This document shows, in pieces, positions 426 through 62,568 of a stretch of 64,000 nt of DNA (within the stretch, counting starts at the first letter, position 1; the number at the start of each line of letters is the position of its first letter). The stretch lies in NCBI RefSeq assembly GCF_900129905.1, contig NZ_FQXG01000003.1, positions 363,771 through 427,770 on the forward strand, read 5' to 3'. The notes below the pieces were generated by a model. It was not told the DNA's origin, ran no database searches, and worked only from the letters and a program-made list of their open reading frames with translations. Made by a program: the position numbers and the translations under genes. The stretch comes from Ferrimonas marina (GTDB taxonomy: Bacteria; Pseudomonadota; Gammaproteobacteria; Enterobacterales; Shewanellaceae).

Positions 426-1607
426 ATGGCGAAGTACCGGGAAGTGTTGGCGCGAGATGTTCGAGGGGGCTGGCGAAACGAGGGTCGTCGTGCTTTGGCG
501 CGGTTGGACGAAGGTCTGCCAAAATATGCTGCTGAAGGTGAATTACTGAAGTCGAGGTATGTCGAGCTCAATAAGGATGTGGGTAACGTAGTTGAAGGTG
601 TCTTTAGCCAGTTCAAGGAGCAATTGCTGGAACAGTTCCGGAACAATGGTTGGGAAAATAGAACCGCAGTAGAAACCAGCTTAAACTCTGCCCTGCCTTC
701 CGGAAAGGCGCAGTTAAAAAAGTTTCTCCGCGACAGTGCAAAGCTTGACCTCGGCACCGAAACCGAACTCACCAGGACCTTGGTTATAGAGGCCCGTCAG
801 TGTGCCGAGGAGTTGATAGCCCTGGATGTTGAGGTAAAGGGTTATGACGGTCTTGTGGTGACCCAAGGTCAGAAGCGTGATGCGGTGGTAAAGCGCCAGG
901 CGGCTGAGAAAGAAGAGGCCCGACGGGTCGGCCACAAAGACGTGAAATATGCCGTGAAGTTTGCTGAGGAGTTGGTGGAGCAGTCCAGAGAAGGGATCAT
1001 CCAGGAGATGGCCCGGCGGACTGAGCGTCATCAAGAGGCGATGATTGCGGCCATCAAGGACGCTGACTATGTCTGGCAGTCTTATGCTCCGCGGAAGCGT
1101 GACAAGGCTTTGCCTTACCACCAGTTTGGTGGCTCCGACCTGGTAACGGTGGCGGATACTGAGTATGACCCAGAGCGGGGATGTGAGGTGTTCGTGATTA
1201 AGCCTAAGGCGGAGCGGGATAGGGTTATAAAAGAGAGGGCCGAGACTGCCTACCAGTATCTTAAAGACGAATTTGTGGGTAAGTTGAGCAAAAAAATTGG
1301 CGGGATCTTGGTGGCGCGCGGGGATTTGAAAGAGGGCGGGCTATCGTCGCCGCCTTTGAGGGTTTCCAGTAATATTGAGGCGCTGGTCACCGCGGAGTTT
1401 GAAGACGGGGGCCGCTTTAATGTCCGTGCCCAGTCGGTGACTGTATACAAACATAATATTAAAAACGGCTTTTGCGAGCAGTATCGGTTTAGCTTTCACG
1501 ATTGCTATTTTGGCGATGGCAGGAAGTTGCCATACCCGGACCTTGATAGGGTAAGCATTCATTTCGCCGGGATTAAGCCTAAGCGGGAAGTGGGTCCGTC
1601 GCGCTGA
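426..1607 (+). CDS. Conserved-looking hypothetical protein, helical N-terminus and beta-rich C-terminal domain
   Basis: 393 residues. Residues 1-240 are charged and helical, with long Glu/Lys/Arg runs consistent with coiled coil. The last ~75 residues look like a compact beta domain with the pattern F.DGG.F.VR......YKHN followed by FSFHDCYFGDG, a layout seen in unknown proteins of phages and plasmids. The frame opens just after a stop at 399-401, and 426 is the first ATG. There is no strong Shine-Dalgarno. A terminator follows at 1625. It ends in PSR, loosely like the L-x-R tails of the helical families further along. Function not recognised. Confidence 0.75.
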   Translation: MAKYREVLARDVRGGWRNEGRRALARLDEGLPKYAAEGELLKSRYVELNKDVGNVVEGVFSQFKEQLLEQFRNNGWENRTAVETSLNSALPSGKAQLKKFLRDSAKLDLGTETELTRTLVIEARQCAEELIALDVEVKGYDGLVVTQGQKRDAVVKRQAAEKEEARRVGHKDVKYAVKFAEELVEQSREGIIQEMARRTERHQEAMIAAIKDADYVWQSYAPRKRDKALPYHQFGGSDLVTVADTEYDPERGCEVFVIKPKAERDRVIKERAETAYQYLKDEFVGKLSKKIGGILVARGDLKEGGLSSPPLRVSSNIEALVTAEFEDGGRFNVRAQSVTVYKHNIKNGFCEQYRFSFHDCYFGDGRKLPYPDLDRVSIHFAGIKPKREVGPSR

Positions 1608-6118: not shown

Positions 6119-6934
6119 ATGTCTGCGAAAAGTCTTATCGAACGCGTCAAGCCGGCCCTGGGGCAGATGGGAGGGGCCGGCATACCTCCTGGTGGGCGCT
6201 ACACGGCCGTTGTTGAGGTCATTAGCCAACTGGAGTCGACGGTATATGCGCACCCAGGTGTCAACATTACCCGGGAGCGGTTGATCGAAAACCTTGGGAC
6301 GCTGGTCAGCATGCACCAGAGTGCCAGTGGCGTATCGGAATCCATCGATGAACAGCGCCACCGGGACGAAATGGCGCTGCGGGAAAGAGACTATGAGGAC
6401 GATCTCAACTGCCACGCTCACAAGGCAATGGCCTGGTTGGGTTACGATGATTGTCATAGTGAGGTGGTGAGGTTGGCCGATGCCTTGGGGGAGGCAATCG
6501 ACCATGGCCTGCATGATACCCCGGGGGTGGCGCCAGCCACATTCAAAAGCGCCGTGCAGTTTCTTAAGGATGTCAGCAAATGGCAGGGCCGGGTGAAAGA
6601 AAGGCTGGGCGAGAGCGCGCCTGAGGGATTTTTGATGGAGCGGGCGGAAGCGGAGAAATTCATCTCGGAGGCTTGCGGATTACTGGGTGCGATTAAAAAT
6701 GCCCCGTTGGTCGATGCTCAGTACAGCAGCCGTCTCGAAGACCTCGCCTACTTCATTGACTGTACAGGTCTCCAGCTTGACCAGGGCTTGGACGGGGCTG
6801 AGGGGGCCTGCGTTGCAGAGAGGCGCGAGGTTCTTGTTGAACTGGACAAAGATATAACGTGGGGCATCGCGCGTTGTCAGAAATATCTTAAGGAAGTCAC
6901 GCCAGAGTCGGAGCCTGGCCTTAGCCGGAATTAA
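6119..6934 (+). CDS. Helical protein, probable member of the dispersed helical family A
   Basis: 271 residues, almost wholly helical and acidic, with no membrane segment or signal. The ATG at 6119 follows TAGGAAAAAATCCCGT. Residues ~150-215 (KSAVQFLKDVSKWQ, then EKFISEACGLLGAI) have the same spacing as LGDWYVVVSKLCEAA in the 61722 protein, so distant relationship is likely. It ends EPGLSRN, close to the L-x-R tail of other members. It has its own extended -10 promoter and a strong terminator. Function unknown. Confidence 0.75.
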   Translation: MSAKSLIERVKPALGQMGGAGIPPGGRYTAVVEVISQLESTVYAHPGVNITRERLIENLGTLVSMHQSASGVSESIDEQRHRDEMALRERDYEDDLNCHAHKAMAWLGYDDCHSEVVRLADALGEAIDHGLHDTPGVAPATFKSAVQFLKDVSKWQGRVKERLGESAPEGFLMERAEAEKFISEACGLLGAIKNAPLVDAQYSSRLEDLAYFIDCTGLQLDQGLDGAEGACVAERREVLVELDKDITWGIARCQKYLKEVTPESEPGLSRN

Positions 6935-10448: not shown

Positions 10449-11810
10449 TTATCGCCCAAGCTCGGCCTGGGCTTGTCTGGCCTTCTTGCCCTTCTTGATT
10501 AGGAACTCTGGATTCGGGGTGTCCTCTGGTACCTCTTCAAAGTCCTTGCAGCGGTTGATCGCCGTAAATTTGGTGCCCTTGTACTCCTTGTGATGTGCAA
10601 GGGTGCCGGTCAGATGGTAGTGCTTGCCGACCTCAAGATCTGGTGCGCTGCTTGGGGTGGTGAGCCATTCGAACGTCCTGCCTCCGCTGTCTCGGAAGGT
10701 CAATCGGAGCTTGTCCCCGTCATGAAAGTTGTGAAGACGTGATTTGGTAAGTTTAAGCGCCAATCGCCCGCGCTGTTTCAGTTCGCCGTAGTGCTCGTTG
10801 AGCAAGGTGGCCGCGTCTAAGGCTTGCTCCTTTTGCTTCTCCATGTCCCGCTGGTAGCAGCTGGGCAGTGACGCCAGCAGGCCGACCTGGAAGTTGTGGT
10901 TGCGGTCATTGAGGTCGATGGCCGCCACGCTCGCTAGCGAGCGAGCATTGGCAACGAAGTTGTTGGTGCTGTCGGAGCTGCGGTAATGGGCAATCACCGC
11001 TTCCGCGTTGCTCAGATGCGGGTGCGCCTCGCCCCGGTGATGGGCTTGCATTAATTCAGCCACCGGCTTGCTGGGACTTTGGATTTCGTTAAGGACTGCC
11101 AGCTTGGTGGGCGTCCGAGAGGCAGATTTGTGGAAGCCGTTGCGCTCGGTTTCCAGTGAGGCAATGGCCAGCAGCAGTTTGGTGTCGACGTAGCGAGCCG
11201 CCCGCTGGGTGGGCTCGTAGCCGGGATCGTCCATCTTGGACAAGTCCAGGAACAAGGCCTGAGTGTCCGCCATCAGCGCCAGTTTGTTCAGTGAGCCCGG
11301 AGCGATGAAGTCGTCCACGCAGGTCGAACCGATCTGTTTGGCTTCGCCGGAGTTGATGTCCTGCAAAAGGTAGGTGGTCTTGCGGTTGCGCAGGGTGGAG
11401 CAGTGCTCGCAGTTGGGCTTTTGCTGGTGCAGATCCAGTCCGAGTTGCTCAAGCCGCTCTTCGCCTTGGGTGCCAAAGGGCTTAACCAGGTTAACGGGTT
11501 GGCCTTCCGGGTCCTTTTCGTGCTCAATCTTGGCCAGGGCCAGCCATTGTTGGTTGTCTTGGCCTGAGAGTTGCGGCCATTCGCCTTCCAGTGTGGCCCG
11601 GCGTTTGCGGATCTGAATGACCTGCTCGTGGTAAGGCTCGCCAGGTTCTATCTTGGTGAACTGGGTCACGTCCTCCAGCCTCTCCTCGTCGGAGACGGTG
11701 AGCACCGGTGGCTGTAGCCCCAATTTACGTGCGCGCTTGGCCAGTTGATTTATCTTCGTCATGAGCCAGCTGAGCATGTCGGTGTCTACCCAAAATGTCC
11801 TGCGTTCCAT
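10449..11810 (-). CDS. Zn-binding and OB-fold-like protein of plasmid/phage type, unknown function
   Basis: 453 residues. CEHC at 134-137 followed by RNRKTTYLLQD and QIGSTCVDDF (Cys164) forms a three-Cys motif found in unknown phage and plasmid proteins, probably a zinc site. Residues ~345-430 (RLALKLTKSRLHNF, then DKLRLTFRDSGG, then HYHLTGTLAHH) look like an OB-type beta barrel, suggesting nucleic-acid binding. The ATG at 11810 follows GGGGA. The C-terminus is Lys-rich. A role in replication or DNA processing is inference only. Confidence 0.75.
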   Translation of the reverse strand: MERRTFWVDTDMLSWLMTKINQLAKRARKLGLQPPVLTVSDEERLEDVTQFTKIEPGEPYHEQVIQIRKRRATLEGEWPQLSGQDNQQWLALAKIEHEKDPEGQPVNLVKPFGTQGEERLEQLGLDLHQQKPNCEHCSTLRNRKTTYLLQDINSGEAKQIGSTCVDDFIAPGSLNKLALMADTQALFLDLSKMDDPGYEPTQRAARYVDTKLLLAIASLETERNGFHKSASRTPTKLAVLNEIQSPSKPVAELMQAHHRGEAHPHLSNAEAVIAHYRSSDSTNNFVANARSLASVAAIDLNDRNHNFQVGLLASLPSCYQRDMEKQKEQALDAATLLNEHYGELKQRGRLALKLTKSRLHNFHDGDKLRLTFRDSGGRTFEWLTTPSSAPDLEVGKHYHLTGTLAHHKEYKGTKFTAINRCKDFEEVPEDTPNPEFLIKKGKKARQAQAELGR

Positions 11811-14581: not shown

Positions 14582-14738
14582 TCTCCGTGGCGCCGGTGGC
14601 ACCAGTGCCCACCGCGGGTCTAAACGGTGTCTCGATGAAGCCCTTTCTTTAGCCGCACTGAGTTGCTAAAGTCGGTCCCGTTAAAACCTGAAGCTGGCAC
14701 GTTGGTTGTTCGCCGGCAAGGTTGTTCAGGGAGTGGAC

Positions 14739-24798: not shown

Positions 24799-25545
24799 AT
24801 GATCGACCTTGAAAGTGCGCGTCAGAGCGCTGAATTGTTGCGTGGCCTGGCGGGCGGCCTCAAGAGAATCCGCAACGCGCTCGATCAGATCGAGCAAACC
24901 TTGAAAGATGGCGATGAGAGTTTGCCAATCAGTGTGTATCCAAGTTTGCGCGTTCTGCCAAAAGAAGTTCAATGCTGGAACGCATTGCCGAAAGCGCAAA
25001 AAGGTCTACTGGTTGAACGCACAAACGTAGAACAGGGTTCGATTGGTTTGGTTTATCAGGCCTGCAGGGACTTTGAGGATGAATTGAGTTGTGATGAATG
25101 GGGCAGCGCCGAACGACTGGAAGGCGCTAGAGAAACGCTGGCAGACTGCGTTTTTGATGCCAGGTTAGTTCTGGACAAGGCCTACGAAACCGTTCTTGGC
25201 ATTCAGGGCAGTCTTTTTGACCAGTTGGAAACAATGGCTGCTCATCATGGCAAGCAGGCACAAAAGGGCAAGCAATTGGACAAGCAGAGCTGTGCTTGCC
25301 TGGGTGCAATGGAGAGGGATCTGGGGTCAGTGCGCCGCGATTTAGGTGCTGAACATCCGGAGCTTGCTGATAGTCTACGAGAGGTAATCGTGGGCCTCCA
25401 AAATGAGCATGCAAGGGATTTGCCTGTGCTGGGTGACGTCGTGCGTCATCAGGGCATGGATCAGGAGGGTGTGGCGGAATCTCTGGAGACCCTCATTGTC
25501 GCTCAGAGACAGGCCAAGCAAGCTGATCTCCGCCCTGGTCGCTAA
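24799..25545 (+). CDS. Helical protein, possible family A member
   Basis: 248 residues from ATG 24799 (GTG 24796 adjacent), with GGGAAG a few bases ahead. The product is helical throughout and begins ESARQSAELLRGLAGGLKRI, like the start of the 63411 protein. There is no membrane segment. It ends LRPGR. It has its own promoter and terminator, so it is a single-gene unit, as are other family members. Function unknown. Confidence 0.75.
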   Translation: MIDLESARQSAELLRGLAGGLKRIRNALDQIEQTLKDGDESLPISVYPSLRVLPKEVQCWNALPKAQKGLLVERTNVEQGSIGLVYQACRDFEDELSCDEWGSAERLEGARETLADCVFDARLVLDKAYETVLGIQGSLFDQLETMAAHHGKQAQKGKQLDKQSCACLGAMERDLGSVRRDLGAEHPELADSLREVIVGLQNEHARDLPVLGDVVRHQGMDQEGVAESLETLIVAQRQAKQADLRPGR

Positions 25546-27695: not shown

Positions 27696-28619
27696 ATGGT
27701 GCACAAGATCATTCAAGCACCCATGCATACCGCGTTGAGGGTGGCCGGTGAGGTCCATAAGGGCAGGCGCCGTCTTAACAAGCTCCCGTCCGAGATTGGG
27801 GCTAACGAATCACGCTGGAAGGACTCCGAAGCGAGATATGGGTCCGAATTCTTCACAACCCAGATGCTCCAGGAGAGTGATGCGAGGCTGAGGGCAGAGC
27901 TGGAGCAACTCAATGAAGCCGAAGACGGTTGGGAGCAGCAACTAAAGAATGCCGCTGATAGGTACCAGCAGGGAGTGCAGCGCTACGTCGAGGCTGGTGG
28001 GCGGGATTATTGCGATGTCATGATGACGGTCGAGGTCCAAGACCATGGTGAGTTTGAGCTTTTTCAGCGGGCTTTAGACAAGGTGCGGAATGTAGTGCAG
28101 ATTGAGCTGCTACACGGTGGGCGGATCGCTGGTAAAGGACTGTTTGTCATGCTGATGCCACACACATCACTGCAGACCTGCCAGGAAGAGCTGGATATCC
28201 ATGGGATTACTCCATGTCGAATGTGCAGCGGGCCTGAGATACAAGCCCATTGCCAGTTTTTCCTGCCGCAGACGTCGGGGGGCTGGGATTTGGCCGGCGT
28301 AAGGCGGGTTGCGGAACACATCAGGTGGCGACCTGGGAGGGCCATGAAGGACCTCCAGGCAATCGTGGCGCCAACCATTAAGGAAGCAATGCTGCTGGAT
28401 TCCACATTGGCTCGTGGGCCTGCTGAGGCGATTTCGCAGGCTTTCATGGTGGCACCAGAACACTGTGATAGCCTGTACGGCGAGAAATCAAAGAACGCCA
28501 TTCCACTGCGTTACTTCGAGGCGGATGCTAATGGCAGTGCAGAGCGGATCACTCCATACAGCGACATGGAGCGATTCGAGAAGCGCCAGCAAAGCACGCT
28601 AGAGATGCCAGGTCGATAA
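27696..28619 (+). CDS. Helical plus alpha/beta protein, paralogue of the 26721 protein
   Basis: 307 residues from ATG 27696, preceded by GAGGAGTAGAGAA. Residues 1-105 are helical, then a Cys-containing alpha/beta domain follows (YCDVMMTVEVQDHGEF; LFVMLMPHTSLQTCQEEL). Near the end PYSDMERFEK repeats the motif of the upstream paralogue. The two are 21 bases apart and closed by one terminator, so they form an operon. It ends LEMPGR. Not recognised. Confidence 0.75.
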   Translation: MVHKIIQAPMHTALRVAGEVHKGRRRLNKLPSEIGANESRWKDSEARYGSEFFTTQMLQESDARLRAELEQLNEAEDGWEQQLKNAADRYQQGVQRYVEAGGRDYCDVMMTVEVQDHGEFELFQRALDKVRNVVQIELLHGGRIAGKGLFVMLMPHTSLQTCQEELDIHGITPCRMCSGPEIQAHCQFFLPQTSGGWDLAGVRRVAEHIRWRPGRAMKDLQAIVAPTIKEAMLLDSTLARGPAEAISQAFMVAPEHCDSLYGEKSKNAIPLRYFEADANGSAERITPYSDMERFEKRQQSTLEMPGR

Positions 28620-41901: not shown

Positions 41902-42483
41902 ATGCTCTACGTGGTCGACAATCCAGGGTCCAATTTTGAGGAGAACACGGTTGTCGCGGTTAATCCGAAAGGCCTGGAGCCCTGCAACCTGATCACTGGG
42001 CTGCCCGAAGGGCTGGAGCGTGACCCCGCCTGGACCGCCCGTAATCAGTGCTATAACAACGTCCACAACGCGTTGCAGCAGTTGGGGCCGTACTGTGGCG
42101 AGTGGGGTATGGCCCATGTGCTGATTGTGGCTGACAACACCCTGTGTTGTGGCCATGCGGTGCTCTGGCATATCACAGAGAACGCCTTTTATGACATTAC
42201 CCCGCCGGCGGATGGGATGTCAGCACCGGAGCATGTGCTGCTGGCGTTGACGGTGACCCAGATGGAGAACATCGAGTTGGCCACCCTGGCCCGCGAGCGC
42301 TTCGGCGCAGAAGATAAGATCTCGCTACCCAACTTTCCCGATCTGGCCGCAGTGGAACCTGGCAGCGTGGAGGGTCCATTGGCGTTGCGCCTGGCCAAGC
42401 TGCACCGTTCCTTGATGCTCAATGAAGGGGTGTTGGGTCGGGCCAAAGAAAACGCCGGCTCAGAGCCGGCGTTGGTTCGGTAG
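41902..42483 (+). CDS. Possible papain-like-fold protein (second candidate)
   Basis: 193 residues, with ATAAGGGGGCGGT directly before ATG 41902. NQCYNNVHNAL (Cys50), CCGHAVLWHI (His85) and NAFYDITPP (Asp98) give the Cys/His/Asp order of the papain/transglutaminase-like fold. It is distinct in sequence from the 39543 candidate. The C-terminal half is helical and ends ALVR, another L-x-R tail. A hairpin overlapping the last codons serves as terminator. Confidence 0.68.
   Translation: MLYVVDNPGSNFEENTVVAVNPKGLEPCNLITGLPEGLERDPAWTARNQCYNNVHNALQQLGPYCGEWGMAHVLIVADNTLCCGHAVLWHITENAFYDITPPADGMSAPEHVLLALTVTQMENIELATLARERFGAEDKISLPNFPDLAAVEPGSVEGPLALRLAKLHRSLMLNEGVLGRAKENAGSEPALVR
42451..42473. terminator. 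Hairpin overlapping the 3' end of the 41902 gene
   Basis: AACGCCGGC-TCAGA-GCCGGCGTT, followed by GGTT. It lies inside the last codons and before the convergent lipoprotein gene ending at 42495. Confidence 0.6.
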
Positions 42484-51141: not shown

Positions 51142-51537
51142 GTGACATCCCAAATTGATGCGTTGAAATATGGTTGGCCAGAAGCAGAAAAACTTCAGCA
51201 GCAGCGACGTTTGATCGTCAAGCACACCGGCACAGAGAAGCGGACGCTTATCAACGGTGAATACTGGTTCCTGGTTCGGCGCAACGGTTTTAATCGCCAA
51301 GTCCCGTTCGGGCAACTCACCCCTGATGAATTCGAAGCCCACCTGGATGCGGCTGCGCGCAAAGAACTGCGTGAGCAGCGACCGGGTTCTGCCGGTGGGT
51401 TGCTGGGTGATCCAGTAGCAGGCGTTGTCGGGGATGGCGCCGTGGCACAGCTGCAGGCAGAGTTGAAGGCCGCCCGGGGCCTCCCCGGTGCTGCCCCTGG
51501 GGTAAAGGCGTCGGGCGAAAGCAAGGACCTGGTGTAG
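51142..51537 (+). CDS. Small protein, paralogue of the 55845 protein
   Basis: 131 residues from GTG 51142. Residues 15-80 (LQQQRRLIVKHTGTEKRTLI to DEFEAHLDAAARKELREQR) align with the 55845 protein (QEKLILKHTHRDFKG to QEFEEKLNSAARKERAER). A basic beta region is followed by a helix with the AARKE signature. The two genes bracket the first half of the tandem array, so they may be co-factors of the system. Unknown family. Confidence 0.75.
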   Translation: MTSQIDALKYGWPEAEKLQQQRRLIVKHTGTEKRTLINGEYWFLVRRNGFNRQVPFGQLTPDEFEAHLDAAARKELREQRPGSAGGLLGDPVAGVVGDGAVAQLQAELKAARGLPGAAPGVKASGESKDLV

Positions 51538-51550
51538 CGCCGGGTCAAAG

Positions 51551-51611
51551 GGATTCAGATTCGGTTGTCGAATGTCGGCGACCAAAACAACCGTATTGAG
51601 AGGCAAGTTGC
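51551..51611 (+). repeat. Array leader repeat, copy 1
   Basis: The ~60 bp before the first array gene contain CAGATTCGGTTGTCG, then AATGTCGGCGACCAAAACAA, then GAGGCAAGTTGC up to the ATG. The same blocks recur before the genes at 52715 and 53914. Confidence 0.75.
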
Positions 51612-52598
51612 ATGGTGGATGGGTCGACTAAGAAAGCCCAGGAAAGGGCAGTGTTAAGTATGGCTCAAGCGATTGCAGGGCGGGTGGGGCATGCGAAGCA
51701 ACTTGAAGCTTCGGGTCTTATCGCCAGCTACATTTTGGCACTGAGGGAGCGGTACAAGGAAGGGGAAGCTGAGGCGAAGCGCTTGAATGATCATTTGCGG
51801 TTACCCACCGGCTTCTTCGCCGATAAGGAAATTCAGGATGCTCTGAAGGCGCAGTTAGAAGCGACGGCTCGTTCGAGCTCTCTATTGCACGAGAAGTTAA
51901 TTGAGACGGAACAGGCCATCCGTCGCCATTTGGAAATGAAAAGTAAGCATGAGGACCAACTTGCCGAGGTGCTGCGCTCGGGTCAGGTCGCTAGCGTGCT
52001 CTCTACAGTGAAGGTGACCGGAGTAGGGGGTAAGTCATTGAAAGGCCTTATGGCAGAGCCGGCCATGGCAGAAATCCGAGATCTTGTGACACGGGACGGG
52101 CCTAATGCCCACGGTATGAAGCTGGAATCAGAGCGTTCTTTAGATGCTGATGGGTCCGCTGCACACGTGTTCGTTCTGGTTGGCAATTTATCCCAGGTGC
52201 AGCGCTTTTGTGAGCGCTTACGCCACATTCTCTATGAGGGGGGGTATTTGGGTATCGAGGTGGACTCCATGCACGTCGCGGGGATCCCCAAGATGGAACC
52301 GAAGCCGGCGGTGGATATCCCCGACAGAGGTGACAACGGTGCCTTTGTGGCGGGGCTCAAAAGGTTTGTCTGCTACCGGGATGTGACGGGTGTTACTCAC
52401 CAGAGAGATCTGGCTGACGTGGTGGCCCGCGCTGGTATGGAATGCTTGGCACCTCTGGCCAGGTTTCTCCCGAAGGGGCACGATTACGATGACCCTGCAA
52501 TAAAGGCGCCAGGGTATGAACGTGACCTCATGGATTTGAGGTCTGTGGTTGAGAAAGCTAGGGGTCGGGGCAACGAAGTCGAGGGCTTAGATCGGTAA
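51612..52598 (+). CDS. Tandem-array family B protein, member 1
   Basis: 328 residues from ATG 51612. The helical coiled-coil half (1-115) is followed by LAEVLRSGQVASVLSTVKV. The core domain holds LKGLMAEPAMAEIRDLV, HGMKLESERS, FVLVGNLSQVQRFCERL, MHVAGIPKMEP and CYRDVTG. All blocks recur in members 2 and 3. It ends GLDR. There is no signal peptide, membrane helix or catalytic motif. It lies in an array of eight similar genes. Function unknown. Confidence 0.85.
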   Translation: MVDGSTKKAQERAVLSMAQAIAGRVGHAKQLEASGLIASYILALRERYKEGEAEAKRLNDHLRLPTGFFADKEIQDALKAQLEATARSSSLLHEKLIETEQAIRRHLEMKSKHEDQLAEVLRSGQVASVLSTVKVTGVGGKSLKGLMAEPAMAEIRDLVTRDGPNAHGMKLESERSLDADGSAAHVFVLVGNLSQVQRFCERLRHILYEGGYLGIEVDSMHVAGIPKMEPKPAVDIPDRGDNGAFVAGLKRFVCYRDVTGVTHQRDLADVVARAGMECLAPLARFLPKGHDYDDPAIKAPGYERDLMDLRSVVEKARGRGNEVEGLDR

Positions 52599-52654
52599 TT
52601 AAAGATGAGGCCGCCCTTGAATGGGGTTGGCTTTACGATTCCCAGATACAAACG

Positions 52655-52714
52655 GTTTCAGATTCGGTCGCCCAATGCAGGCGGTCACAACAATCATATC
52701 AAGAGGGCAGTCGC
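52655..52714 (+). repeat. Array leader repeat, copy 2
   Basis: TTTCAGATTCGGTCGCCCAA, then TGCAGGCGGTCACAACAATC, then AAGAGGGCAGTCGC before the ATG at 52715. It is closely similar to copy 1, which shows recent duplication of gene plus leader. Confidence 0.75.
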
Positions 52715-53710
52715 ATGTTGGACAGGTTAGTCGAGAAAGGGGCGGGAAAGGCAATCCTAAGGATTGCTGAGACGGTCGCTTCGCGAGATCGGCGTGCTAA
52801 GCAACTGAGTAAACATAAAGTGAGCACTGCCGAGTCAATGATCGGGGAGGAGGCGCTCGGGATGCTTAATGGGGCGATCGAGAGGTTAAAGCAACTTGCA
52901 GACAGCCCAGGAAGACTGATCTCCAGCGATGCTGATCTGTCCAGGTTTCGCGATCTGAATGCTGCTGCCGGGCCTTTTGAGTCGTTCTTTACAAGCAGCT
53001 TGACCAATCTGTCGAGTGCGCAGCGCACCCATCAGTCGAGGGAAAGAAAGAACGAGGAAAAGTTGGCAAAAGTCCTGCACTCGGGTGAAGTGGTAAGTGC
53101 GGTGTCAACGATCCAAGTTCAAGGTACGAAGGGTCAGAGCCTGGATGATCTAATGGCAGAGCCGGTCATGGCCGGGCTTCGTGAACTGGTTAGTGGCTCC
53201 AGTAGTGAACTGCATGGCATGAAACTGGTATCTGAGCGTTCCAGGGGTGGTGATGGGGCCGCTGTTCATGGGTTTGTGCTGAATGGCAATGTGTCGCAGA
53301 TGCAGAAGTTGGTTAAGTGCCTGGGTGATTACATTGCGCTTAATGACCCAGATCGGTCCGTCATCGCGACTCGTCTCCAGCACATCGCAGGGATGCCTAA
53401 AATCGCACCGCAGCCATCACGGCTTTTTTTCGACTACAACGCTGATGATGGTGCGTTCAGTGCCGCTGTTTCAAAGTTTTCTTGCTACGTCGATGTGACT
53501 GGTTTCGCCAGTAAGGCTTACGTGCCAGAGCGTTTGGCCCAGTCAGTATTGGAGCGTATGGTGCCATTGGCCGAATATCTACCGGAGGAGGGTGAGCCCG
53601 TGACGCCTGCCGAGTACGTCGATGGTCTCGCCCGTGAGGTTGCGACCTTGCTCGCCATGGCTGAACAAGCGAGGGAACACAAGAAAGAGTCCGGCGGCTT
53701 GGAGCGTTAA
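52715..53710 (+). CDS. Tandem-array family B protein, member 2
   Basis: 331 residues. Blocks are in the same order as in member 1: LAKVLHSGEVVSAVSTIQV, LDDLMAEPVMAGLRELV, HGMKLVSERS, FVLNGNVSQMQKLVKCL, HIAGMPKIAP and CYVDVTG, ending SGGLER. The helical first ~110 residues are diverged from member 1 while the core is well kept, so the N-terminus changes faster. GAGGG in the leader is the ribosome site. Function unknown. Confidence 0.85.
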   Translation: MLDRLVEKGAGKAILRIAETVASRDRRAKQLSKHKVSTAESMIGEEALGMLNGAIERLKQLADSPGRLISSDADLSRFRDLNAAAGPFESFFTSSLTNLSSAQRTHQSRERKNEEKLAKVLHSGEVVSAVSTIQVQGTKGQSLDDLMAEPVMAGLRELVSGSSSELHGMKLVSERSRGGDGAAVHGFVLNGNVSQMQKLVKCLGDYIALNDPDRSVIATRLQHIAGMPKIAPQPSRLFFDYNADDGAFSAAVSKFSCYVDVTGFASKAYVPERLAQSVLERMVPLAEYLPEEGEPVTPAEYVDGLAREVATLLAMAEQAREHKKESGGLER

Positions 53711-53860
53711 TTTATGGGTACTGACAGGGCTGGTGAGTTCTGGCCTACTGTACCTGCAGACAGAATTGAATGCCGCCTGGTGTGCTCTGGGTTAATCAAA
53801 CTTGGGGCAGTAACAGGGCCCAAACAGGTATCGGATGTGGCGCCAGGCAGATAGGTTTAC

Positions 53861-53913
53861 AGGGGATCGCCAAGCACAGGCGGCCAAGATAATCATAATC
53901 AGAGGGTGGTTGT
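53861..53913 (+). repeat. Array leader repeat, copy 3
   Basis: GGGGATCGCCAAGCACAGGC, then GGCCAAGATAATCATAATC, then AGAGGGTGGTTGT before the ATG at 53914. It is shorter and more diverged than copies 1 and 2. Confidence 0.65.
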
Positions 53914-54765
53914 ATGGAAGGTAGGAAGGTTAATAAAGGCCAGGTAGGGGCGCTTCAAGGGATAGCTGATGCGGTTTCTTCCAGAGTCGAGCAGACGCGG
54001 TACAGTATCGGCGCAGGTCAGTCGGGGTCTGGGAAAGGGACAATCGAGTCATTGACGAATACCAAGGATATCTTGCGCTGGCTGTCAGATTCCTCTGAAA
54101 AACTGGCCAAAAGTGAGGCCGATTTAGCAGAGGTTCTGCGGACTGGTGATCTGGTGAGTGGTTTGTCGACCGTCAAAATCTCTGCCGAGGCAGGTCAGTC
54201 TATAGACGAGCTAATGGCGGATCCGTTGGTAAAGGAGATTCATGACCTGGTGAAAAACACCGGGAAGGGGTCCCATGGTATGCAACTGGTCAGCGAGCGG
54301 ATCTTTGTAGAAGACGGTACGGTTTGTTGTGGGTACGTGTTGCAGGGTAACTTGTCCCAGATGAGGGACTTTGCCCTGTTCTTAAATGTCGTGATAGCGA
54401 TAAATAGCCAGCAAAAGTCCCGGGAAAGAGTCACCTCCACACACCTTGGTGGAGTGGCTAAGGTGGCAGAGCAGGCGTCAAGGTGTATCCCCAGTCCGGG
54501 TGATGATGATGCCAAGCGAGCGGCTCAGCCCGTGTTGAGCTGCTATGTCGATGTGACCGATGAAATACCCATGGGGGATGTGGGGACGTTGGTGGCTCGA
54601 TCCGCGTTGGAGCGCTTGGTGCCGTTGGGCAACCTTCCGGGTATGGGCAAACCCGCTACGCCAACCTTGCCTGCAGATGGTATGGAGCGCGAGGTTGAGG
54701 CATTTTGCGCTTTGGCAATGCGGGCGAAGGCGCGAGAGCACAAATCCGGCGGCTTAGAGCGGTAA
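53914..54765 (+). CDS. Tandem-array family B protein, member 3
   Basis: 283 residues. Shorter helical half (1-65), then LAEVLRTGDLVSGLSTVKI, IDELMADPLVKEIHDLV, HGMQLVSERI, YVLQGNLSQMRDFALFL, HLGGVAKV and CYVDVTD. It ends KSGGLER, nearly identical to the tail of member 2. The coding end and the leader are both kept while the middle varies. Function unknown. Confidence 0.85.
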   Translation: MEGRKVNKGQVGALQGIADAVSSRVEQTRYSIGAGQSGSGKGTIESLTNTKDILRWLSDSSEKLAKSEADLAEVLRTGDLVSGLSTVKISAEAGQSIDELMADPLVKEIHDLVKNTGKGSHGMQLVSERIFVEDGTVCCGYVLQGNLSQMRDFALFLNVVIAINSQQKSRERVTSTHLGGVAKVAEQASRCIPSPGDDDAKRAAQPVLSCYVDVTDEIPMGDVGTLVARSALERLVPLGNLPGMGKPATPTLPADGMEREVEAFCALAMRAKAREHKSGGLER

Positions 54766-54846
54766 TAAATGCAAGAGGCTGGGGCTTAGGGGCCCTGGCC
54801 TCTGTTGGGTTTATCGGCCCATGTTGTTGCGGTTGGGAGTATTGAA

Positions 54847-55812
54847 ATGGCTTCGGAAGAAATCAATAAGGCTAGGCGTATGAATGAGTTGTGGCCGGCT
54901 AAGATCCTGCATCGGTTAAAGGCCCTGGCGGCGGAAACGGGCCCAATATCGTCGGAGGAGGTTCGCGGTAAGGTACAGGCGCTCGAGAAGGTCAGCACCG
55001 CGCTGAACGACATTTGGAGCGTTGTCACTGATCTAAAGCTGTTCCCTGGGGCGGCGGAGCATTACGACAAGGCACGACAGAGCGTGAAGGGCTTGACTGA
55101 GGTTAAGGATGGTCTGAACAAAGAAGTGGCTGAGTCATTAGATCGCCACCATAAGGTGCTGTACAAAGTTCAGGATATCGAATTCGATCTCGAACGGTTC
55201 TTGGAGGATCGGGAACCGGGCCGTACCACCGCGGTTTCCGTCTTGGAGTTCGTGGCTACACGTGGCCAGAGTGCGGCGGACTTCAGGTTGGATGCCTGTG
55301 AATTCAAAGGGCTCATCGAGGGCAATACCCTTGACCATATGCACCTGCTCTCTAAAGAGGAGGGGAATGTGTTGGGTGCCCCCTCCATCAAATACGTACT
55401 GGTGGGCAACCTGCGTCAGCAGGAGAAGCTGGCAGAGCGTCTTGGAAACTTTGGTGAAAGGCGCTGGTTCCGTTTGGAAAAAGACCACCTGGCCGGTCTT
55501 CCTCAGCCGGGACAGAGGGCGCAATGTGATTTGCCTGCACCGCCTGCAGGCTGTGACGCGCATCTGGTGGCAGCTGAACTGTTAACTTGCGCGGTGGACA
55601 GTGAGCCGCTGTTGGGTAATCCCAATGCCGCTGATAAGGTGGCCAGGAGTGTGGTTAAGGCCATGGCGCCTCAACTGGATGTCTACCGGGAGCACAGCAA
55701 GATTGCGCCGGCCTCAATGATGCCTGGTCGTGAGGGGGATTTTGAGGTGTACTGCAAACTGCACCAGCGCCACATGGAAAAGACTTCTAGCTACAGTGGC
55801 CCAGGGCTATGA
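54847..55812 (+). CDS. Tandem-array family B protein, member 4
   Basis: 321 residues from ATG 54847, preceded by GGGAGTATTGAA; TTG 54805 opens the frame. Helical half (1-150), then core blocks YVLVGNLRQQEKLAERL and HLAGLPQPG, with a Cys- and Pro-rich region after them. It ends SSYSGPGL and so lacks the L-x-R tail. More distant from members 1-3. Its stop overlaps a possible ATG of the next gene. Function unknown. Confidence 0.8.
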   Translation: MASEEINKARRMNELWPAKILHRLKALAAETGPISSEEVRGKVQALEKVSTALNDIWSVVTDLKLFPGAAEHYDKARQSVKGLTEVKDGLNKEVAESLDRHHKVLYKVQDIEFDLERFLEDREPGRTTAVSVLEFVATRGQSAADFRLDACEFKGLIEGNTLDHMHLLSKEEGNVLGAPSIKYVLVGNLRQQEKLAERLGNFGERRWFRLEKDHLAGLPQPGQRAQCDLPAPPAGCDAHLVAAELLTCAVDSEPLLGNPNAADKVARSVVKAMAPQLDVYREHSKIAPASMMPGREGDFEVYCKLHQRHMEKTSSYSGPGL

Positions 55813-55844
55813 TTGGGCAACGCAAATCATCAGGAAACGCCATT

Positions 55845-56315
55845 ATGAATGCCATCGAATCGGCCGCTATTGCGCGCATCAAGCAAGTCAGCCGGCAAGA
55901 GCAAGAAAAGCTGATCCTTAAACACACCCATCGTGACTTCAAGGGCTCTGACGGAAGGTCCATCATGCAGAACCGTAACGGTGCGTCTTGTACGGTGGAT
56001 GTCAGTTGTCTGAGCGAGCAAGAGTTCGAAGAAAAGCTTAACTCCGCGGCAAGGAAGGAGCGGGCGGAGCGGACCCGGGACCTGGTCGATGCCGTAGTTC
56101 AGCGCCATGGCGCGCCCAAACTGCCCGAGGGATACCGACAGCAGTGGTGCACGGACCTGGCGGCTGCAAGGGATCTGTTCGCCGAGAATGGGATCTTGGC
56201 GGATTGGCCAGAGATGGCGCCTCACCGAGCAGCGATTGCCGCCGACATCGACAAGGAGATTCACCGAGAGCAGCAGGCGTTGGAGTCATCTGGCCCTGCC
56301 ACACTGGAGCGATAG
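55845..56315 (+). CDS. Small protein, paralogue of the 51142 protein, inside the array
   Basis: 156 residues from ATG 55845, with AGGAAACGCCATT before it; ATG 55809 overlaps the previous stop and is an alternative. It shares the basic beta region and the AARKE helix with the 51142 protein, then has an extra helical C-terminal part ending TLER, again an L-x-R tail. The next gene starts two bases after its stop, so it is co-translated with array genes. Confidence 0.78.
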   Translation: MNAIESAAIARIKQVSRQEQEKLILKHTHRDFKGSDGRSIMQNRNGASCTVDVSCLSEQEFEEKLNSAARKERAERTRDLVDAVVQRHGAPKLPEGYRQQWCTDLAAARDLFAENGILADWPEMAPHRAAIAADIDKEIHREQQALESSGPATLER

Positions 56316-56317
56316 CG

Positions 56318-57085
56318 ATGAAGTTAACCCAGGATGAGCTGACCTTTGCCCAATTGACCGTGGTGCATGCCCGGCGTGCCAAAGCGCTTGAGCGTGCAAA
56401 GGGTGACAAGGCCGGCGCCTTGGCTAACCTGAAGAAAGCCAACGAGGTCTGTGTGCCCAGGATCGCCGAGAAGCTGATGGTGGCTGAGGTGGATACGGCG
56501 CTGAGTGAGATTGTCTTTGCCGAGGATCGGTGGCCAGATGTGGTCGAAGTCCTCCGCTGGCACTGCCAGGCAGAGCGACCCATGACGGTGGTCGACTTCC
56601 GCATGGTCCAAGGCAAGGTGCATCTGAGTCTGATCGGTAACATGTCAGGTCAGCAAGATCTGTGGCGTGAGCTTGGGGATCGCGATGGCAGGATCCCCGG
56701 CTTGTCGCACCATCATAGGGTGGGCTTGCCCAAGTTCGAACAGTGCCTTGAACGCCTCGCTTTGCACAAGATCACTGGCGAGGCCGCTCCGCTGTGTCGC
56801 GAAATTAATGAAGATGTCGGCGGGTTTGATGATCTGTGCAGCCAGCAGTTCCTGGTCTGCGCTCACAGCGACTGGGCGTACCGGTGTGGGGAGCGGGCGG
56901 CCGAGGTGGCAGCCGAGGGTTTGTTCGCAGCAGTGTCGCCGGCGGTGGCCAGTGAGATCGGTTCCAATGGGTATCCGCCGGTTCCTGCTCACCAGGAGAA
57001 GCGCTTTGACGTGGCCATGGCGAAGTACCGTCAGGCCTACGGGTTCGTGAAGGAGATGAAGGGTCAGGCCATGCAGCCAGGCTAA
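56318..57085 (+). CDS. Tandem-array family B protein, member 5
   Basis: 255 residues from ATG 56318, with GGAGCGATAGCG before it. Short helical half (1-70), then the core with LSLIGNMSGQQDLWRELGD and HRVGLPKFEQ, a Cys-containing region, and a helical end (AMAKYRQAYGFVKEM). It lacks the L-x-R tail. Diverged, but recognisable from the GN.S...L and H..GLPK blocks. Function unknown. Confidence 0.78.
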   Translation: MKLTQDELTFAQLTVVHARRAKALERAKGDKAGALANLKKANEVCVPRIAEKLMVAEVDTALSEIVFAEDRWPDVVEVLRWHCQAERPMTVVDFRMVQGKVHLSLIGNMSGQQDLWRELGDRDGRIPGLSHHHRVGLPKFEQCLERLALHKITGEAAPLCREINEDVGGFDDLCSQQFLVCAHSDWAYRCGERAAEVAAEGLFAAVSPAVASEIGSNGYPPVPAHQEKRFDVAMAKYRQAYGFVKEMKGQAMQPG

Positions 57086-57117
57086 CTGACAATATTATTG
57101 ATGGTGGGATTTGTGCA

Positions 57118-57930
57118 ATGAAACACAACAGAAGTGTCTTGATGGCCTTTAAGAAGTACATTGAGGAGACCTCGGTGTTTAACGAGGCGTACCCCGTGGT
57201 TAATGGTATTGACTGGATCGCCAATGTCCAGGCGATGGAGGCGGATGGGTTGGACGCCAGTGCGCGTGAGGCGATCGTAGCTCACTACCTGCCCGGTTAT
57301 CGCAAGCGCTCATTGCGGTACGGTCTAGTATATGGTTCCGCACCGGGCTACTTGAGAGAACAGTTTGAGCGAGATGACAGCATTTGCAGTGCGATGAGCT
57401 GGGTTTGCGCTGAGGGTGGGCTCGCATCTGATCTGGATGCCGTTTTGACCGGTTTAGGGGTGAGGTTTGCACGGGTGGATTCCCGGGATGGGCTGATCGA
57501 CCGAGTGGTGTTTGCTAAGCCCTCGAAGGGTGCTCTGTTGGAAGAGAAATTGCAGGCATTGGAAGCGAATGGTGGGGCCGAACCGGTGTTTATTCGGGCC
57601 CGACATTTCGTTGGGTTGCCGAGGCTGGAGCAGCGTTTTGATGAGGCTTGCCGGCCGGACCATTTGTCAGGGACTGGTGCGGCCGCTGCATTGTTCTCTA
57701 CCTTTGTGGAGGTCGAACCCAACATGACACCTGTGCAGCGCTGGGAAGTCTGGCCGGCTTGTCTGCAGGCGTTGTGTCCCAGTCGGGTGCCTATGGCTTA
57801 TGGCGTCAAAGTGAAGCCATCTGCGGACCGCGAAGACCGTGCCGAGGTGCTGGCGGAGTTGGCCCGGGAGGTTGAGGCGATTAAGCAGGCCCCATTACCA
57901 AAGGAAGCGACCGCCGAGTTGGCGCGCTAA
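57118..57930 (+). CDS. Tandem-array family B protein, member 6
   Basis: 270 residues from ATG 57118; ATG 57142 is an alternative. The helical half includes AREAIVAHYLPGYRKRS, then a core with LLEEKLQALEANGG and ARHFVGLPRLEQR in place of the H..GLPK block. It ends TAELAR. Diverged from members 1-3 but in the same position and orientation and of the same length class. Function unknown. Confidence 0.78.
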   Translation: MKHNRSVLMAFKKYIEETSVFNEAYPVVNGIDWIANVQAMEADGLDASAREAIVAHYLPGYRKRSLRYGLVYGSAPGYLREQFERDDSICSAMSWVCAEGGLASDLDAVLTGLGVRFARVDSRDGLIDRVVFAKPSKGALLEEKLQALEANGGAEPVFIRARHFVGLPRLEQRFDEACRPDHLSGTGAAAALFSTFVEVEPNMTPVQRWEVWPACLQALCPSRVPMAYGVKVKPSADREDRAEVLAELAREVEAIKQAPLPKEATAELAR

Positions 57931-57957
57931 CTAATAGCTCTGGGAGCAGGAGAGATC

Positions 57958-58779
57958 ATGAGTACAGCGAGGTCGGTAGAGGCCCTAACAGCGGAAACAG
58001 TCACCTACCATCGTGGTCGAGTCGACCGTCTGGTGCTTAATGGCGTGCCCTATGGGAGCCTTGAGCCAGACATCACCGGGTGGAAGGGCCGCGGGCTCAG
58101 TATTTCTGCTGTCGCTGAAATGGAAGCTATAAGTCGGGAATTCGATTCGCTGCGAGACGCGGCAAAGAAAGGGTTCGACAACGCCGCGGTTACGTTGGAC
58201 AGAGCACTGGGGTTGGACCAGTCAGGTGTCATCAGCGCGGTTTCCAGTTTTCGGTTTAGCTCCAAACTGGCTGACAAAATCGACTACTACGTTAAGGCCT
58301 CGGGCATGCGGCGTTTGACCTGCGCGCACTTCCCTGAGCAGGGGGAGACCTGCCTGGATGTGGTTGGCACCTTTGTGGATCAGCGGGCCTTGATCGATGC
58401 CATACAAGACTTCAGGGCTAGGGAGGCGTGCGGTGAATTGCTGAAGGTGGATCACTTCGCCGGCTTGCCGATGGTTGGCCAGAAGCGTACATGCAAAGCC
58501 TTGCAAAATGGTGGGGTTGTGCGTCAGTGTGGTGCCGCTTGGCAGTCAAGAGCGGTCGGTGAGCAGTTGTTGGGGGTTGCCTACCTGGCGGACAACGAGC
58601 GCCCCTACCGGGCGGGTGACCACAGTGCTCGGTGTCTGCTTGGCGTAGCGCCAATGGAGACCGAGCACTATTTTGGTCAGGATCCGGTGCAGGGGGGCTG
58701 GGGTGCCCGAGGGCAAGTGATGGATGCCTACCGGTTTGCCGTCATGCTGGTACCGCATGAGTCCGAGCTAAGCCGTTAA
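57958..58779 (+). CDS. Tandem-array family B protein, member 7
   Basis: 273 residues, with GGGAGCAGGAGAGATC before ATG 57958. Core blocks are GVISAVSSFRFSSKLAD (compare VASVLSTVKV), DVVGTFVDQRALIDAIQDF and DHFAGLPMVGQKR. It ends SELSR. It is the last gene of the array and is followed by a strong terminator. Function unknown. Confidence 0.8.
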   Translation: MSTARSVEALTAETVTYHRGRVDRLVLNGVPYGSLEPDITGWKGRGLSISAVAEMEAISREFDSLRDAAKKGFDNAAVTLDRALGLDQSGVISAVSSFRFSSKLADKIDYYVKASGMRRLTCAHFPEQGETCLDVVGTFVDQRALIDAIQDFRAREACGELLKVDHFAGLPMVGQKRTCKALQNGGVVRQCGAAWQSRAVGEQLLGVAYLADNERPYRAGDHSARCLLGVAPMETEHYFGQDPVQGGWGARGQVMDAYRFAVMLVPHESELSR

Positions 58780-61721: not shown

Positions 61722-62504
61722 ATGGCTAAGCTTGATGTTCGTCCTGCGATCACTCAATACGCTCAATACCTTGGTGCATTGGTGGAATTGCGTTCGCTTC
61801 TCCACGACTCACTTAAGGAAGCACATGGTGTGGCCAACCTGCACAGCTTCACTCAAGTGCAGCGTGGGGCAAAGTCGTTCAGAAATGTTCCGGTTGACCA
61901 GGGCGACTTCGATCGCATCATTCGGGTGATGGCGGAGAGCGTCAATGTACCAGCAACCAATGCGCAGGCATTTTATCGCCAGTTCCATGCCTTGCAGATG
62001 AGTCATATGGAGTTTGAAGAGAAGGCGCGGAAGGTTGTGCGGGAGGCCAGCGGTCAGCCCCAGGGCGAAGTCTCTTACCGGCGTCTTACAGAGGTGGCAG
62101 ATGAAGCCCAAGATGGGCTGAGGGACTTATTGGAAGCCGCTGAGGTCGCGGTGTATTCCATCAATCGTGACCTGGCAAAACGAGAAGTGGGCGTGCAGAG
62201 GGCTGCAAAGCAAGTCCTCGGTGATTTGACCGAGTGGATTGGCAAACTGCATGAGCAGGGTGATGTCGGCGCTGCTCTAGATCGCAACAAAGAAAGTCTC
62301 GGCGACTGGTATGTCGTTGTAAGCAAGTTGTGCGAAGCAGCCGACCTAGACAGCCGCGAAATTGATAGGGCGATTGATAAAGTAACGTATGCAAATATTG
62401 GTTCAGATTTTGATCCTGCTTTGGGGAATTTGCACCACCATGCGCAAGAGCTCTTCAGCGAGGTGAGCCAGGCTTTGAGCCAGAATGAAGAACTGGCCCG
62501 TTGA
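61722..62504 (+). CDS. Helical family A protein, array member 1
   Basis: 260 residues. AAAGGATTGGTAA precedes ATG 61722. Helical throughout, no membrane segment. Blocks VSYRRLTEVADEAQDGL, VLGDLTEWI and LGDWYVVVSKLCEAADLDS followed by IDRAIDKV align with the 62569 protein. It ends NEELAR, an L-x-R tail. Function unknown; the form suggests a filament, scaffold or coiled-coil partner. Confidence 0.8.
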   Translation: MAKLDVRPAITQYAQYLGALVELRSLLHDSLKEAHGVANLHSFTQVQRGAKSFRNVPVDQGDFDRIIRVMAESVNVPATNAQAFYRQFHALQMSHMEFEEKARKVVREASGQPQGEVSYRRLTEVADEAQDGLRDLLEAAEVAVYSINRDLAKREVGVQRAAKQVLGDLTEWIGKLHEQGDVGAALDRNKESLGDWYVVVSKLCEAADLDSREIDRAIDKVTYANIGSDFDPALGNLHHHAQELFSEVSQALSQNEELAR

Positions 62505-62568
62505 TCGGCCGTTCTGGTTCTTTGCAAACGGTTATTAACACAACAGCATAATAATAAAGGGGTCGGCC

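What the first reader, a model, noticed from the sequence alone, without database searches (positions are those of the whole stretch)
51542..58779. Tandem array of fast-diverging paralogues with no known function
Seven genes in one orientation (51612, 52715, 53914, 54847, 56318, 57118, 57958), plus an outlier at 48145, share a helical N-terminal half and a core with a hydrophobic strand, then GN.S...L, then H..G(L/I/M)P(K/R). Members 1-3 are clearly duplicates; 4-7 keep only the core blocks. N-termini differ most, as expected if they contact a varying partner. There is no signal peptide, membrane helix or known catalytic motif. A diversifying family on an accessory element could be a conflict system, a structural set, or an immunity or adaptor repertoire. 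This is the best candidate in the window for an undescribed system.
Basis: partly seen in the sequence, partly recalled or inferred. Interest (0 to 1): 0.85.

Follow-up and report, generated by a model that had tools for sequence, protein, structure and literature searches.

The report
Plasmid-specific C-terminal tags on orphan proteins
A run of fast-changing, unrecognisable proteins on a huge bacterial plasmid ends in a short shared tail that also marks unrelated proteins of the same plasmid, and four other huge Pseudomonas plasmids mark many of theirs with tails of the same design, which looks like an address label for sending a plasmid's own proteins through its transfer machine.

Summary
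The array is real: M1-M4 are clear paralogues, M5-M7 weak but supported ones; the outlier 48145 is not supported. No relative of the family was found outside this genome, and it matches no Pfam, PHROG, PDB or PADLOC entry of weight.

The main result lies at the C-termini. Five of the eight array genes (six loosely) end in [G/E/A]-[L/M/P]-x-R-COOH. Contig C10, a 576-kb megaplasmid-like contig, has 21 such genes of 500 (1.4 expected) in 19 families; a 400-kb chromosomal stretch shows no excess. C10 encodes a type IVB (Dot/Icm-like) secretion system. In the first 400 kb of four related Pseudomonas megaplasmids, 5-16% of genes carry a plasmid-typical tail ([DE]LGL on pMPPla107, pBASL58 and pPL1; [DS][FL]x[IL] on the FeN3W plasmid), often on tandem arrays of diverging orphans. 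A Vibrio type IVB megaplasmid and three other controls show no such tail.

Best reading: the tail is a plasmid-specific type IVB translocation signal, and the array a diversifying set of proteins delivered through the plasmid's transfer machine. The tag is shown statistically; transport, receptor and target cell are inferred. The Vibrio result and the imperfect match of tag type to DotM relatedness speak against a simple version.

The parts
51612..52598 (+). M1, 328 aa, orphan array protein, tail ...EVEGLDR-COOH (strict tag)
52715..53710 (+). M2, 331 aa, paralogue of M1 (34% identity), tail ...SGGLER (strict tag)
53914..54765 (+). M3, 283 aa (the gene finder prefers a start at 54073), tail ...SGGLER (strict tag)
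54847..55812 (+). M4, 321 aa, diverged paralogue, tail ...SGPGL (no tag)
55809..56315 (+). Inserted gene, 168 aa, paralogue of 51142-51537 and not of M1-M7; tail ...PATLER (loose tag)
56318..57085 (+). M5, 255 aa, weak member, tail ...QAMQPG (no tag)
57118..57930 (+). M6, 270 aa, weak member, tail ...ATAELAR (strict tag)
57958..58779 (+). M7, 273 aa, weak member (the only one of M5-M7 that hhalign supports), tail ...ESELSR (strict tag)
51142..51537 (+). Gene just upstream, 131 aa, paralogue of 55809-56315, untagged
426..1607 (+). Unrelated orphan, 393 aa, tail ...EVGPSR (strict tag)
6119..6934 (+). Unrelated orphan, 271 aa, tail ...EPGLSRN (tag plus one residue)
41902..42483 (+). Unrelated orphan, 193 aa, tail ...SEPALVR (strict tag)
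61722..62504 (+). Unrelated orphan, 260 aa, tail ...NEELAR (strict tag)
24799..25545 (+). Unrelated orphan, 248 aa, tail ...DLRPGR (loose tag only)
27696..28619 (+). Unrelated orphan, 307 aa, tail ...LEMPGR (loose tag only)
10449..11810 (-). 453-aa protein, tail ...QAELGR (strict tag, but its homologues on the FeN3W and Vibrio plasmids do not match their patterns, so possibly chance)

Best explanation
The array encodes soluble orphan proteins that carry, like members of 16 other families on the same megaplasmid, a plasmid-specific C-terminal address tag ([G/E/A]-[L/M/P]-x-R-COOH with Glu upstream). The tag is most likely read by the coupling part of the plasmid's own type IVB (Dot/Icm-like) secretion system, which moves the proteins into a partner cell: a recipient bacterium during conjugation, or another target. 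Bodies diversify, as expected for factors in an arms race or with varying targets, while the tail stays fixed because it must fit one receptor. Shown: the tag, its absence from a chromosomal stretch of the same genome, its spread over unrelated families, the type IVB genes, analogous tags on four related megaplasmids. Inferred: receptor, transport, target cell, activity.
For: Tag: on C10 (500 genes of 80 aa or more) [GE][LM].R ends 16 genes against 0.62 expected from internal occurrences, GL[ED]R 5 against 0.03; L.K (3 vs 2.45) and [IVF].R (4 vs 4.65) are not enriched. Chromosomal control, 400 kb of C6: 1 of 332, 0.42 expected. Codons of the tail vary synonymously. 19 of 456 families are tagged; one representative per family gives 17.7 against 1.2 expected. 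Motif-agnostic pair test: L@-3/R@-1, z 9.2, best internal 5.0. Machine on C10: DotH 4.7e-36, DotI 3.7e-20, DotC/TraI 9.6e-46, DotM_C 1e-32, T4CP TraG-D_C 3.6e-7, T2SSE ATPases. Related plasmids (first 400 kb of pBASL58, pMPPla107, pPL1, FeN3W): tags on 53 of 368, 60 of 379, 20 of 411 and 46 of 340 genes, in 32, 13, 7 and 37 families. Tagged proteins rarely have a membrane helix: 0/21, 4/53, 3/60, 2/20, 2/46, against 104/479, 70/315, 82/319, 72/391, 43/294 untagged. Three homologous clusters have tagged members on FeN3W and on a DLGL-type plasmid; in the two whose tails were printed each copy has its own plasmid's tail. Of 33 C10 genes matched on at least three of the four tagged plasmids, 24 lie in the type IVB/pilus region C10 143997-181374. 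Legionella precedents: a C-terminal hydrophobic residue (RalF) and E-block/DotM (passages).
Against: No transport was tested. A Vibrio megaplasmid with DotH and DotC has no such tag in 800 of 882 kb, though 28 of the 33 shared C10 genes match it too. Tag type does not follow the coupling proteins strictly: Leaf58 DotM is closer to FeN3W (0.61) than to silesiensis (0.54), yet silesiensis shares DLGL with Leaf58. In 8 of 97 tagged clusters a homologue on another of the five plasmids is untagged. The C10 tag is shorter and weaker than the others; M4 and M5 lack it; some C10 carriers are probably chance, such as C10 146725-147795 in the transfer region, whose homologues are mostly untagged. Tag patterns were chosen after looking at the data, except in the pair test. 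Only two other kinds of reader were searched for.
Confidence: 0.5

Rival explanations
1. The tag is a docking peptide for another plasmid-encoded receptor (compartment, partition complex, assembly scaffold, or protease for which the tail is a degron), not a secretion signal.
For: Short C-terminal peptides do such jobs elsewhere (recalled: encapsulin cargo peptides, PDZ ligands, C-degrons). [LF]-x-[LI]-COOH resembles a PDZ ligand (recalled). The tag is absent from a type IVB megaplasmid of Vibrio.
Against: No encapsulin match (PF04454) in the own genome or on four plasmids; no PDZ_6 match on the four plasmids, and none of the eight own-genome matches lies on C10. 24 of 33 genes that C10 shares with at least three of the tagged plasmids, in the parts read, lie in the transfer region.
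Confidence: 0.28
2. The array is a conflict or defence module of fast-evolving sensors or antitoxins; the tail is secondary.
For: Fast divergence and tandem duplication; an AbiLi-like ATPase lies next to it on the other strand (58842-59972, E 2.1e-41).
Against: PADLOC 0 of 9 for M1-M7, the inserted gene and 48145. The same tail marks 16 other families along C10.
Confidence: 0.1
3. The tail is a DNA-level feature (overlap with the next start, terminator, recombination site) or plain homology.
For: Some array genes are tightly packed (gaps of 3 and 28 bases).
Against: Synonymous codons vary and gaps to the next gene range widely; 19 families without detected homology on C10 and 32 on pBASL58 carry the tag.
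Confidence: 0.02
4. Decaying orphan duplicates without a function.
For: No relatives found, weak similarity of M5-M7.
Against: All members are open, with coding signal (scores 17 to 58), and M1-M3, M6 and M7 keep the tail while the bodies diverge; in the 26-member pMPPla107 family mean identity is 0.20 over the whole protein and 0.96 in the last four residues.
Confidence: 0.06

Closest known systems
Legionella Dot/Icm effectors with extreme C-terminal hydrophobic signal (RalF type) or Glu-rich E-block read by DotM
   Same: Type IVB machine with DotM and a DotL-like T4CP; signal at the very C-terminus with a hydrophobic residue (passages)
   Different: Here one near-fixed short tag per plasmid, on a conjugative-type megaplasmid; no Glu-rich block proper (E enriched at -6 to -8 on C10); transport not tested
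Plasmid proteins carried to recipients by conjugation (pED208 conjutome; Sog, ParM and VbhT as cited there)
   Same: Plasmid-encoded proteins translocated to recipients; C-terminal or internal signals shown for chromosomal substrates (abstract and passages of PMC11288057)
   Different: That is an F-type system with varied signals; no replicon-wide common tail or orphan arrays are described in the passages seen
pMPPla107-like Pseudomonas megaplasmids
   Same: Closest type IVB machines (40-48% identity); arrays of orphans with a C-terminal tag, found here
   Different: Tag is [DE]LGL or [DS][FL]x[IL] instead of [GE]LxR; in the parts held no protein matches the M1-M4 profile significantly

Membership tests
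Type IVB (Dot/Icm-like) secretion substrates | The same replicon encodes a type IVB machine | tested here: met
   DotH, DotI, DotC, DotM_C, T4CP and ATPase models match on C10; the TrbI (DotG-type) match is below its curated cut-off
Type IVB (Dot/Icm-like) secretion substrates | C-terminal signal with a hydrophobic residue near the end | tested here: met
   L/M/P at -3 with fixed neighbours, 21 of 500 genes against 1.4 expected; M4, M5 and 48145 do not have it
Type IVB (Dot/Icm-like) secretion substrates | Glu-rich E-block upstream of the end | tested here: inconclusive
   Glu enriched at -6 (z 4.2), -7 (2.7), -8 (3.4) in 24 C10 proteins with the loose tag; no EExxE search was made
Type IVB (Dot/Icm-like) secretion substrates | Cytosolic protein without membrane helix | tested here: met
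   Crude hydropathy rule: 0 of 21 tagged C10 proteins with a membrane helix, 2 of 21 with a signal-like N-terminus; some Legionella effectors do have membrane helices (abstracts in listings), so this is not a strict criterion
Type IVB (Dot/Icm-like) secretion substrates | Machine-dependent translocation | not testable with these tools
   needs a reporter assay
Encapsulin cargo | Encapsulin shell protein encoded on the replicon or in the genome | tested here: not met
   PF04454: 0 of 5 genomes or records, 3 of 14 control genomes rang; only this one shell family was searched
PDZ ligands of a plasmid-encoded PDZ protein | PDZ protein on the plasmid | tested here: inconclusive
   Only PDZ_6 (PF17820) searched: 0 of 4 plasmids, none of 8 own-genome matches on C10
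Known anti-phage defence systems | Match to a PADLOC model | tested here: not met
   0 of 9 array-region proteins
Any Pfam family | Significant profile match | tested here: not met
   M1-M7, 48145, 51142 and the inserted gene: none near a curated cut-off

The most novel reading that the evidence does not exclude
Large type IVB megaplasmids carry a plasmid-specific C-terminal postcode on 4-16% of their genes, mostly orphan proteins in diversifying arrays, and deliver this protein arsenal with or without DNA. The postcode co-evolves with each plasmid's coupling complex, so plasmids do not ship each other's cargo.
Probability: 0.42. Interest if true: 0.92.

Novelty: new variant of a known kind. 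Interest (0 to 1): 0.8.

Why it matters
Many genes of such megaplasmids are annotated as hypothetical proteins. A short tail that marks tens of them at once, varies between plasmids and is visible without homology would turn part of that dark matter into a testable set: add or remove the tail and ask where the protein goes. If it is a transport signal, these plasmids would carry very large cargoes of conjugation-delivered proteins, and the signal would be readable from sequence alone.

Tried and rejected

Results against the reading: the Vibrio megaplasmid has no tag in 800 of 882 kb (in its first 400 kb [LMP].R ends 11 of 376 genes against 2.2 expected and L.K 11 against 3.1, but the pair test there, z 5.7, is no better than internal windows). 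Pseudomonas koreensis p1, typed MPF_I by PLSDB but without a DotH match (a search in which nothing rang), has no such tag in 200 of 468 kb; its best C-terminal pair, A-A, z 6.3, exceeds its internal best 4.9, and the second Vibrio stretch also shows A-A, z 10.7. pSymA: none in 200 kb of 1,354 kb. A Xanthomonas sacchari record fetched as a possible control was dropped before any count because its recX and lexA suggest chromosomal DNA. DotM and DotL relatedness does not strictly predict tag type. 8 of 97 tagged clusters have an untagged homologue on another of the five plasmids. The profile search does not support 48145.

Limits: genes were called by a home-made finder; of the four related plasmids only the first 400 kb was read; 400 kb of the 792,747-base contig C6 stood for the chromosome; strict and loose tag patterns differ and were set after inspection; the array probability (4e-6) is post hoc because the tail was first seen there. 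For the Pfam scans of tagged proteins (looser patterns) 76 of 80 were given (57 of 60 pMPPla107, 19 of 20 silesiensis; four crossing a stretch border were dropped) and 94 of 104 (55 of 57 Leaf58, 39 of 47 FeN3W; one crossed a border, nine I left out by choice). Of 19 papers naming pMPPla107 I searched one by terms.
Full report
What the window is. C10 carries a second full recA (window 7034-8065) besides the one on C14. In the 20 of 49 plasmid records listed for window 1-25000 the match is this recA; 45 of the 49 records are from Pseudomonas. C10 also carries a type IVB secretion system and type IV pilus-like ATPases and a secretin. It is therefore most likely a megaplasmid or part of one; closure was not tested.

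The observation. M1-M4 are clear paralogues. M5-M7 are weak members: with a profile of M1-M4 plus one or two other weak members each comes first to third outside the profile among 2,481 proteins (E 0.02-0.22); M7 alone also beats 209 background genes in hhalign by a small margin. The invariant columns in the seven-way alignment are M1, S131, G181, H221, G224, P281 and P295 of M1. The outlier 48145 has no support. An unrelated gene (55809-56315), paralogous to 51142-51537, sits inside the array.

No relatives. In the own genome M1 finds only M2-M4. There was no match in 59 related genomes apart from one E 0.006 hit, nor in 72,556 plasmid and 50,697 phage records, nor in two contig collections, whose pattern-based scans find closer relatives only; nothing of weight in Pfam, PHROGs, PDB sequences (M1) or PADLOC.

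The tail. M1, M2, M3, M6 and M7 end in GLDR, GLER, GLER, ELAR and ELSR, the inserted gene in TLER; M4 and M5 do not. The same ending recurs on unrelated genes along C10. Of 500 genes of at least 80 aa, 16 end in [GE][LM].R against 0.62 expected from internal occurrences, and 5 in GL[ED]R against 0.03; look-alikes (L.K, [IVF].R) are at expectation. In 332 genes of a 400-kb chromosomal stretch the count is 1 against 0.42. Codons vary synonymously. The wider pattern [GEA][LMP].R (plus GLSRN) marks 21 genes; 11 of the 21 lie in or reach into the window. With homologues collapsed, 19 of 456 families are tagged, three in the array and 16 elsewhere; one representative per family gives 17.7 against 1.2 expected, so one or two carriers may be chance. 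A test that names no motif in advance, the most over-represented residue pair in the last eight positions, picks L at -3 with R at -1 (20 vs 2.94, z 9.2; best internal window 5.0).

The machine and its kin. C10 matches DotH/IcmK, DotI/IcmL, DotC/TraI, DotM_C, a TraG-D_C coupling protein and T2SSE ATPases over their cut-offs, and TrbI (DotG-type) below its cut-off. The nearest machines by DotC and coupling protein are on megaplasmids of 0.88-1.17 Mb: pBASL58 (Pseudomonas sp. Leaf58), the FeN3W plasmid, pMPPla107, pPL1 (P. silesiensis) and Vibrio plasmids, at 40-48% identity. DotM or DotH was confirmed on the five that I used.

Other plasmids, other tails. In the first 400 kb of each: pMPPla107 ends 51 genes of 356 (100 aa or more) in exactly DLGL, pBASL58 27 of 339 in DLGL and 11 in ELGL, pPL1 20 of 359 in DLGL; FeN3W uses [DS][FL]x[IL]. 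Pair z-scores are 41, 29, 20 and 11, against internal bests of 18, 9, 6 and 6 (paralogue families probably raise the internal values). The tails extend further in a plasmid-specific way: R-11, D/E-10 and a hydrophobic -7 on pMPPla107; E-10 and L-7 on pBASL58; G-10, F-7 and S-6 on pPL1; K-11, K/R-10 and I-7 on FeN3W. Tagged families number 13 of 292, 32 of 317, 7 of 351 and 37 of 298. Tagged genes lie next to tagged genes more than chance on the DLGL plasmids: 54 of 60, 35 of 53 and 17 of 20 (random means 17.3, 13.9, 1.8); on FeN3W (19 of 46, random 11.3, maximum 23) and C10 (5 of 21, random 1.6, maximum 7) the excess is within the random maximum. In the 26-member pMPPla107 family mean identity is 0.20 overall and 0.96 in the last four residues. 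Of 170 tagged proteins scanned by Pfam, 5 match DUF4116 and a few others match single families weakly. Ten homologous clusters have tagged members on two or more plasmids; three of them join FeN3W with a DLGL plasmid, and in the two whose tails were printed each copy has its own plasmid's tail. In 8 of 97 tagged clusters a homologue on another of the five plasmids is untagged.

Controls that do not show such a tag. Vibrio parahaemolyticus pVP-19-VB00998 (800 of 882 kb), P. koreensis p1 (200 kb), S. meliloti pSymA (200 kb) and the chromosome stretch. So a type IVB machine alone does not imply a tag.

Mechanism. Tagged proteins look soluble (membrane helix in 0-10% against 15-26% of untagged genes, by a crude rule). 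Of 33 C10 genes matched on at least three of the four tagged plasmids, 24 lie in the type IVB/pilus region C10 143997-181374, which makes the machine the natural common reader; but 28 of the 33 also match the untagged Vibrio plasmid, and only part of each plasmid was read. Legionella uses an extreme C-terminal hydrophobic residue (RalF) and Glu-rich signals read by DotM, and the DotM authors suggest that DotM of other species may have co-evolved interfaces for other tails (passages of PMC7251119 and PMC5802825). Plasmid proteins are known to be carried to recipients by an F-type conjugation system (abstract and passages of PMC11288057). I therefore take the tail as a plasmid-specific translocation signal, at about even odds; a docking or degron tag is the main rival. 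Tag type and DotM relatedness do not match strictly.

Known or not. Of 19 papers that name pMPPla107 I searched one: no mention of C-terminal, type IV secretion, Dot, hypothetical or paralog. pBASL58 is named in one paper, seen only in the listing. A search for a conserved C-terminal motif with megaplasmids or type IV secretion (12 of 313 listed), one for megaplasmids with type IVB terms (15 of 37 listed) and one for DLGL (8 of 1,967 listed, none of the eight holding DLGL) showed no paper on such a tag by title or abstract start. The library holds open-licence papers only.

Noticed in passing
58842-59972 (-): AAA ATPase next to the array, on the other strand, matches AbiLi in PADLOC (E 2.1e-41) and AAA_21 in Pfam (2e-9); possible abortive-infection gene.
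   Followed up: partly
7034-8065 (-): Second full-length recA of the genome, on the megaplasmid; the listed similar records are mostly large Pseudomonas plasmids.
   Followed up: partly
11926-12966 (-) and 14733-15611 (+); C10 248022-254116 and 304449-304916: A seven-member untagged paralogue family on C10, one member with a weak sigma-70 region 3 match below cut-off.
   Followed up: no
26721-27674 and 27696-28619 (+): Tandem pair of a five-member C10 family; one member has the loose tag MPGR.
   Followed up: no
61722-63297 and 63411 onward (+): A second run of orphans; the first two are paralogues (E 1e-13), of which the first ends in ELAR, and the gene from 63411 ends in GLDR just beyond the window.
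   Followed up: partly
L136-L155 (pMPPla107, first 400 kb): A tagged family of 26 diverging paralogues plus others; DLGL ends 51 genes.
   Followed up: yes
L116-L135 (P. silesiensis pPL1): Besides DLGL, proline is over-represented at -3, -4 and -5 (43 vs 18.8 at -3); SPSP or SPEP endings recur on pMPPla107 and FeN3W. Unexplained.
   Followed up: no
Leaf58 and FeN3W tagged set (A3): DUF4116 is the only Pfam domain that recurs in tagged proteins scanned (5 of 94, best E 2e-12).
   Followed up: no
C10 130796-131911 (+), and about 80-110 kb: By eye from N-termini only (recalled, no family search): an FtsZ-like protein, and flagellar FlhA/FliF/FlgK-like proteins on the megaplasmid (sequences).
   Followed up: no
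C10 63203-64453 (DotM): Net charge of the C-terminal half of C10 DotM is -3, against +8 to +13 on five other plasmids, while the C10 tag alone ends in Arg. Suggestive only.
   Followed up: no
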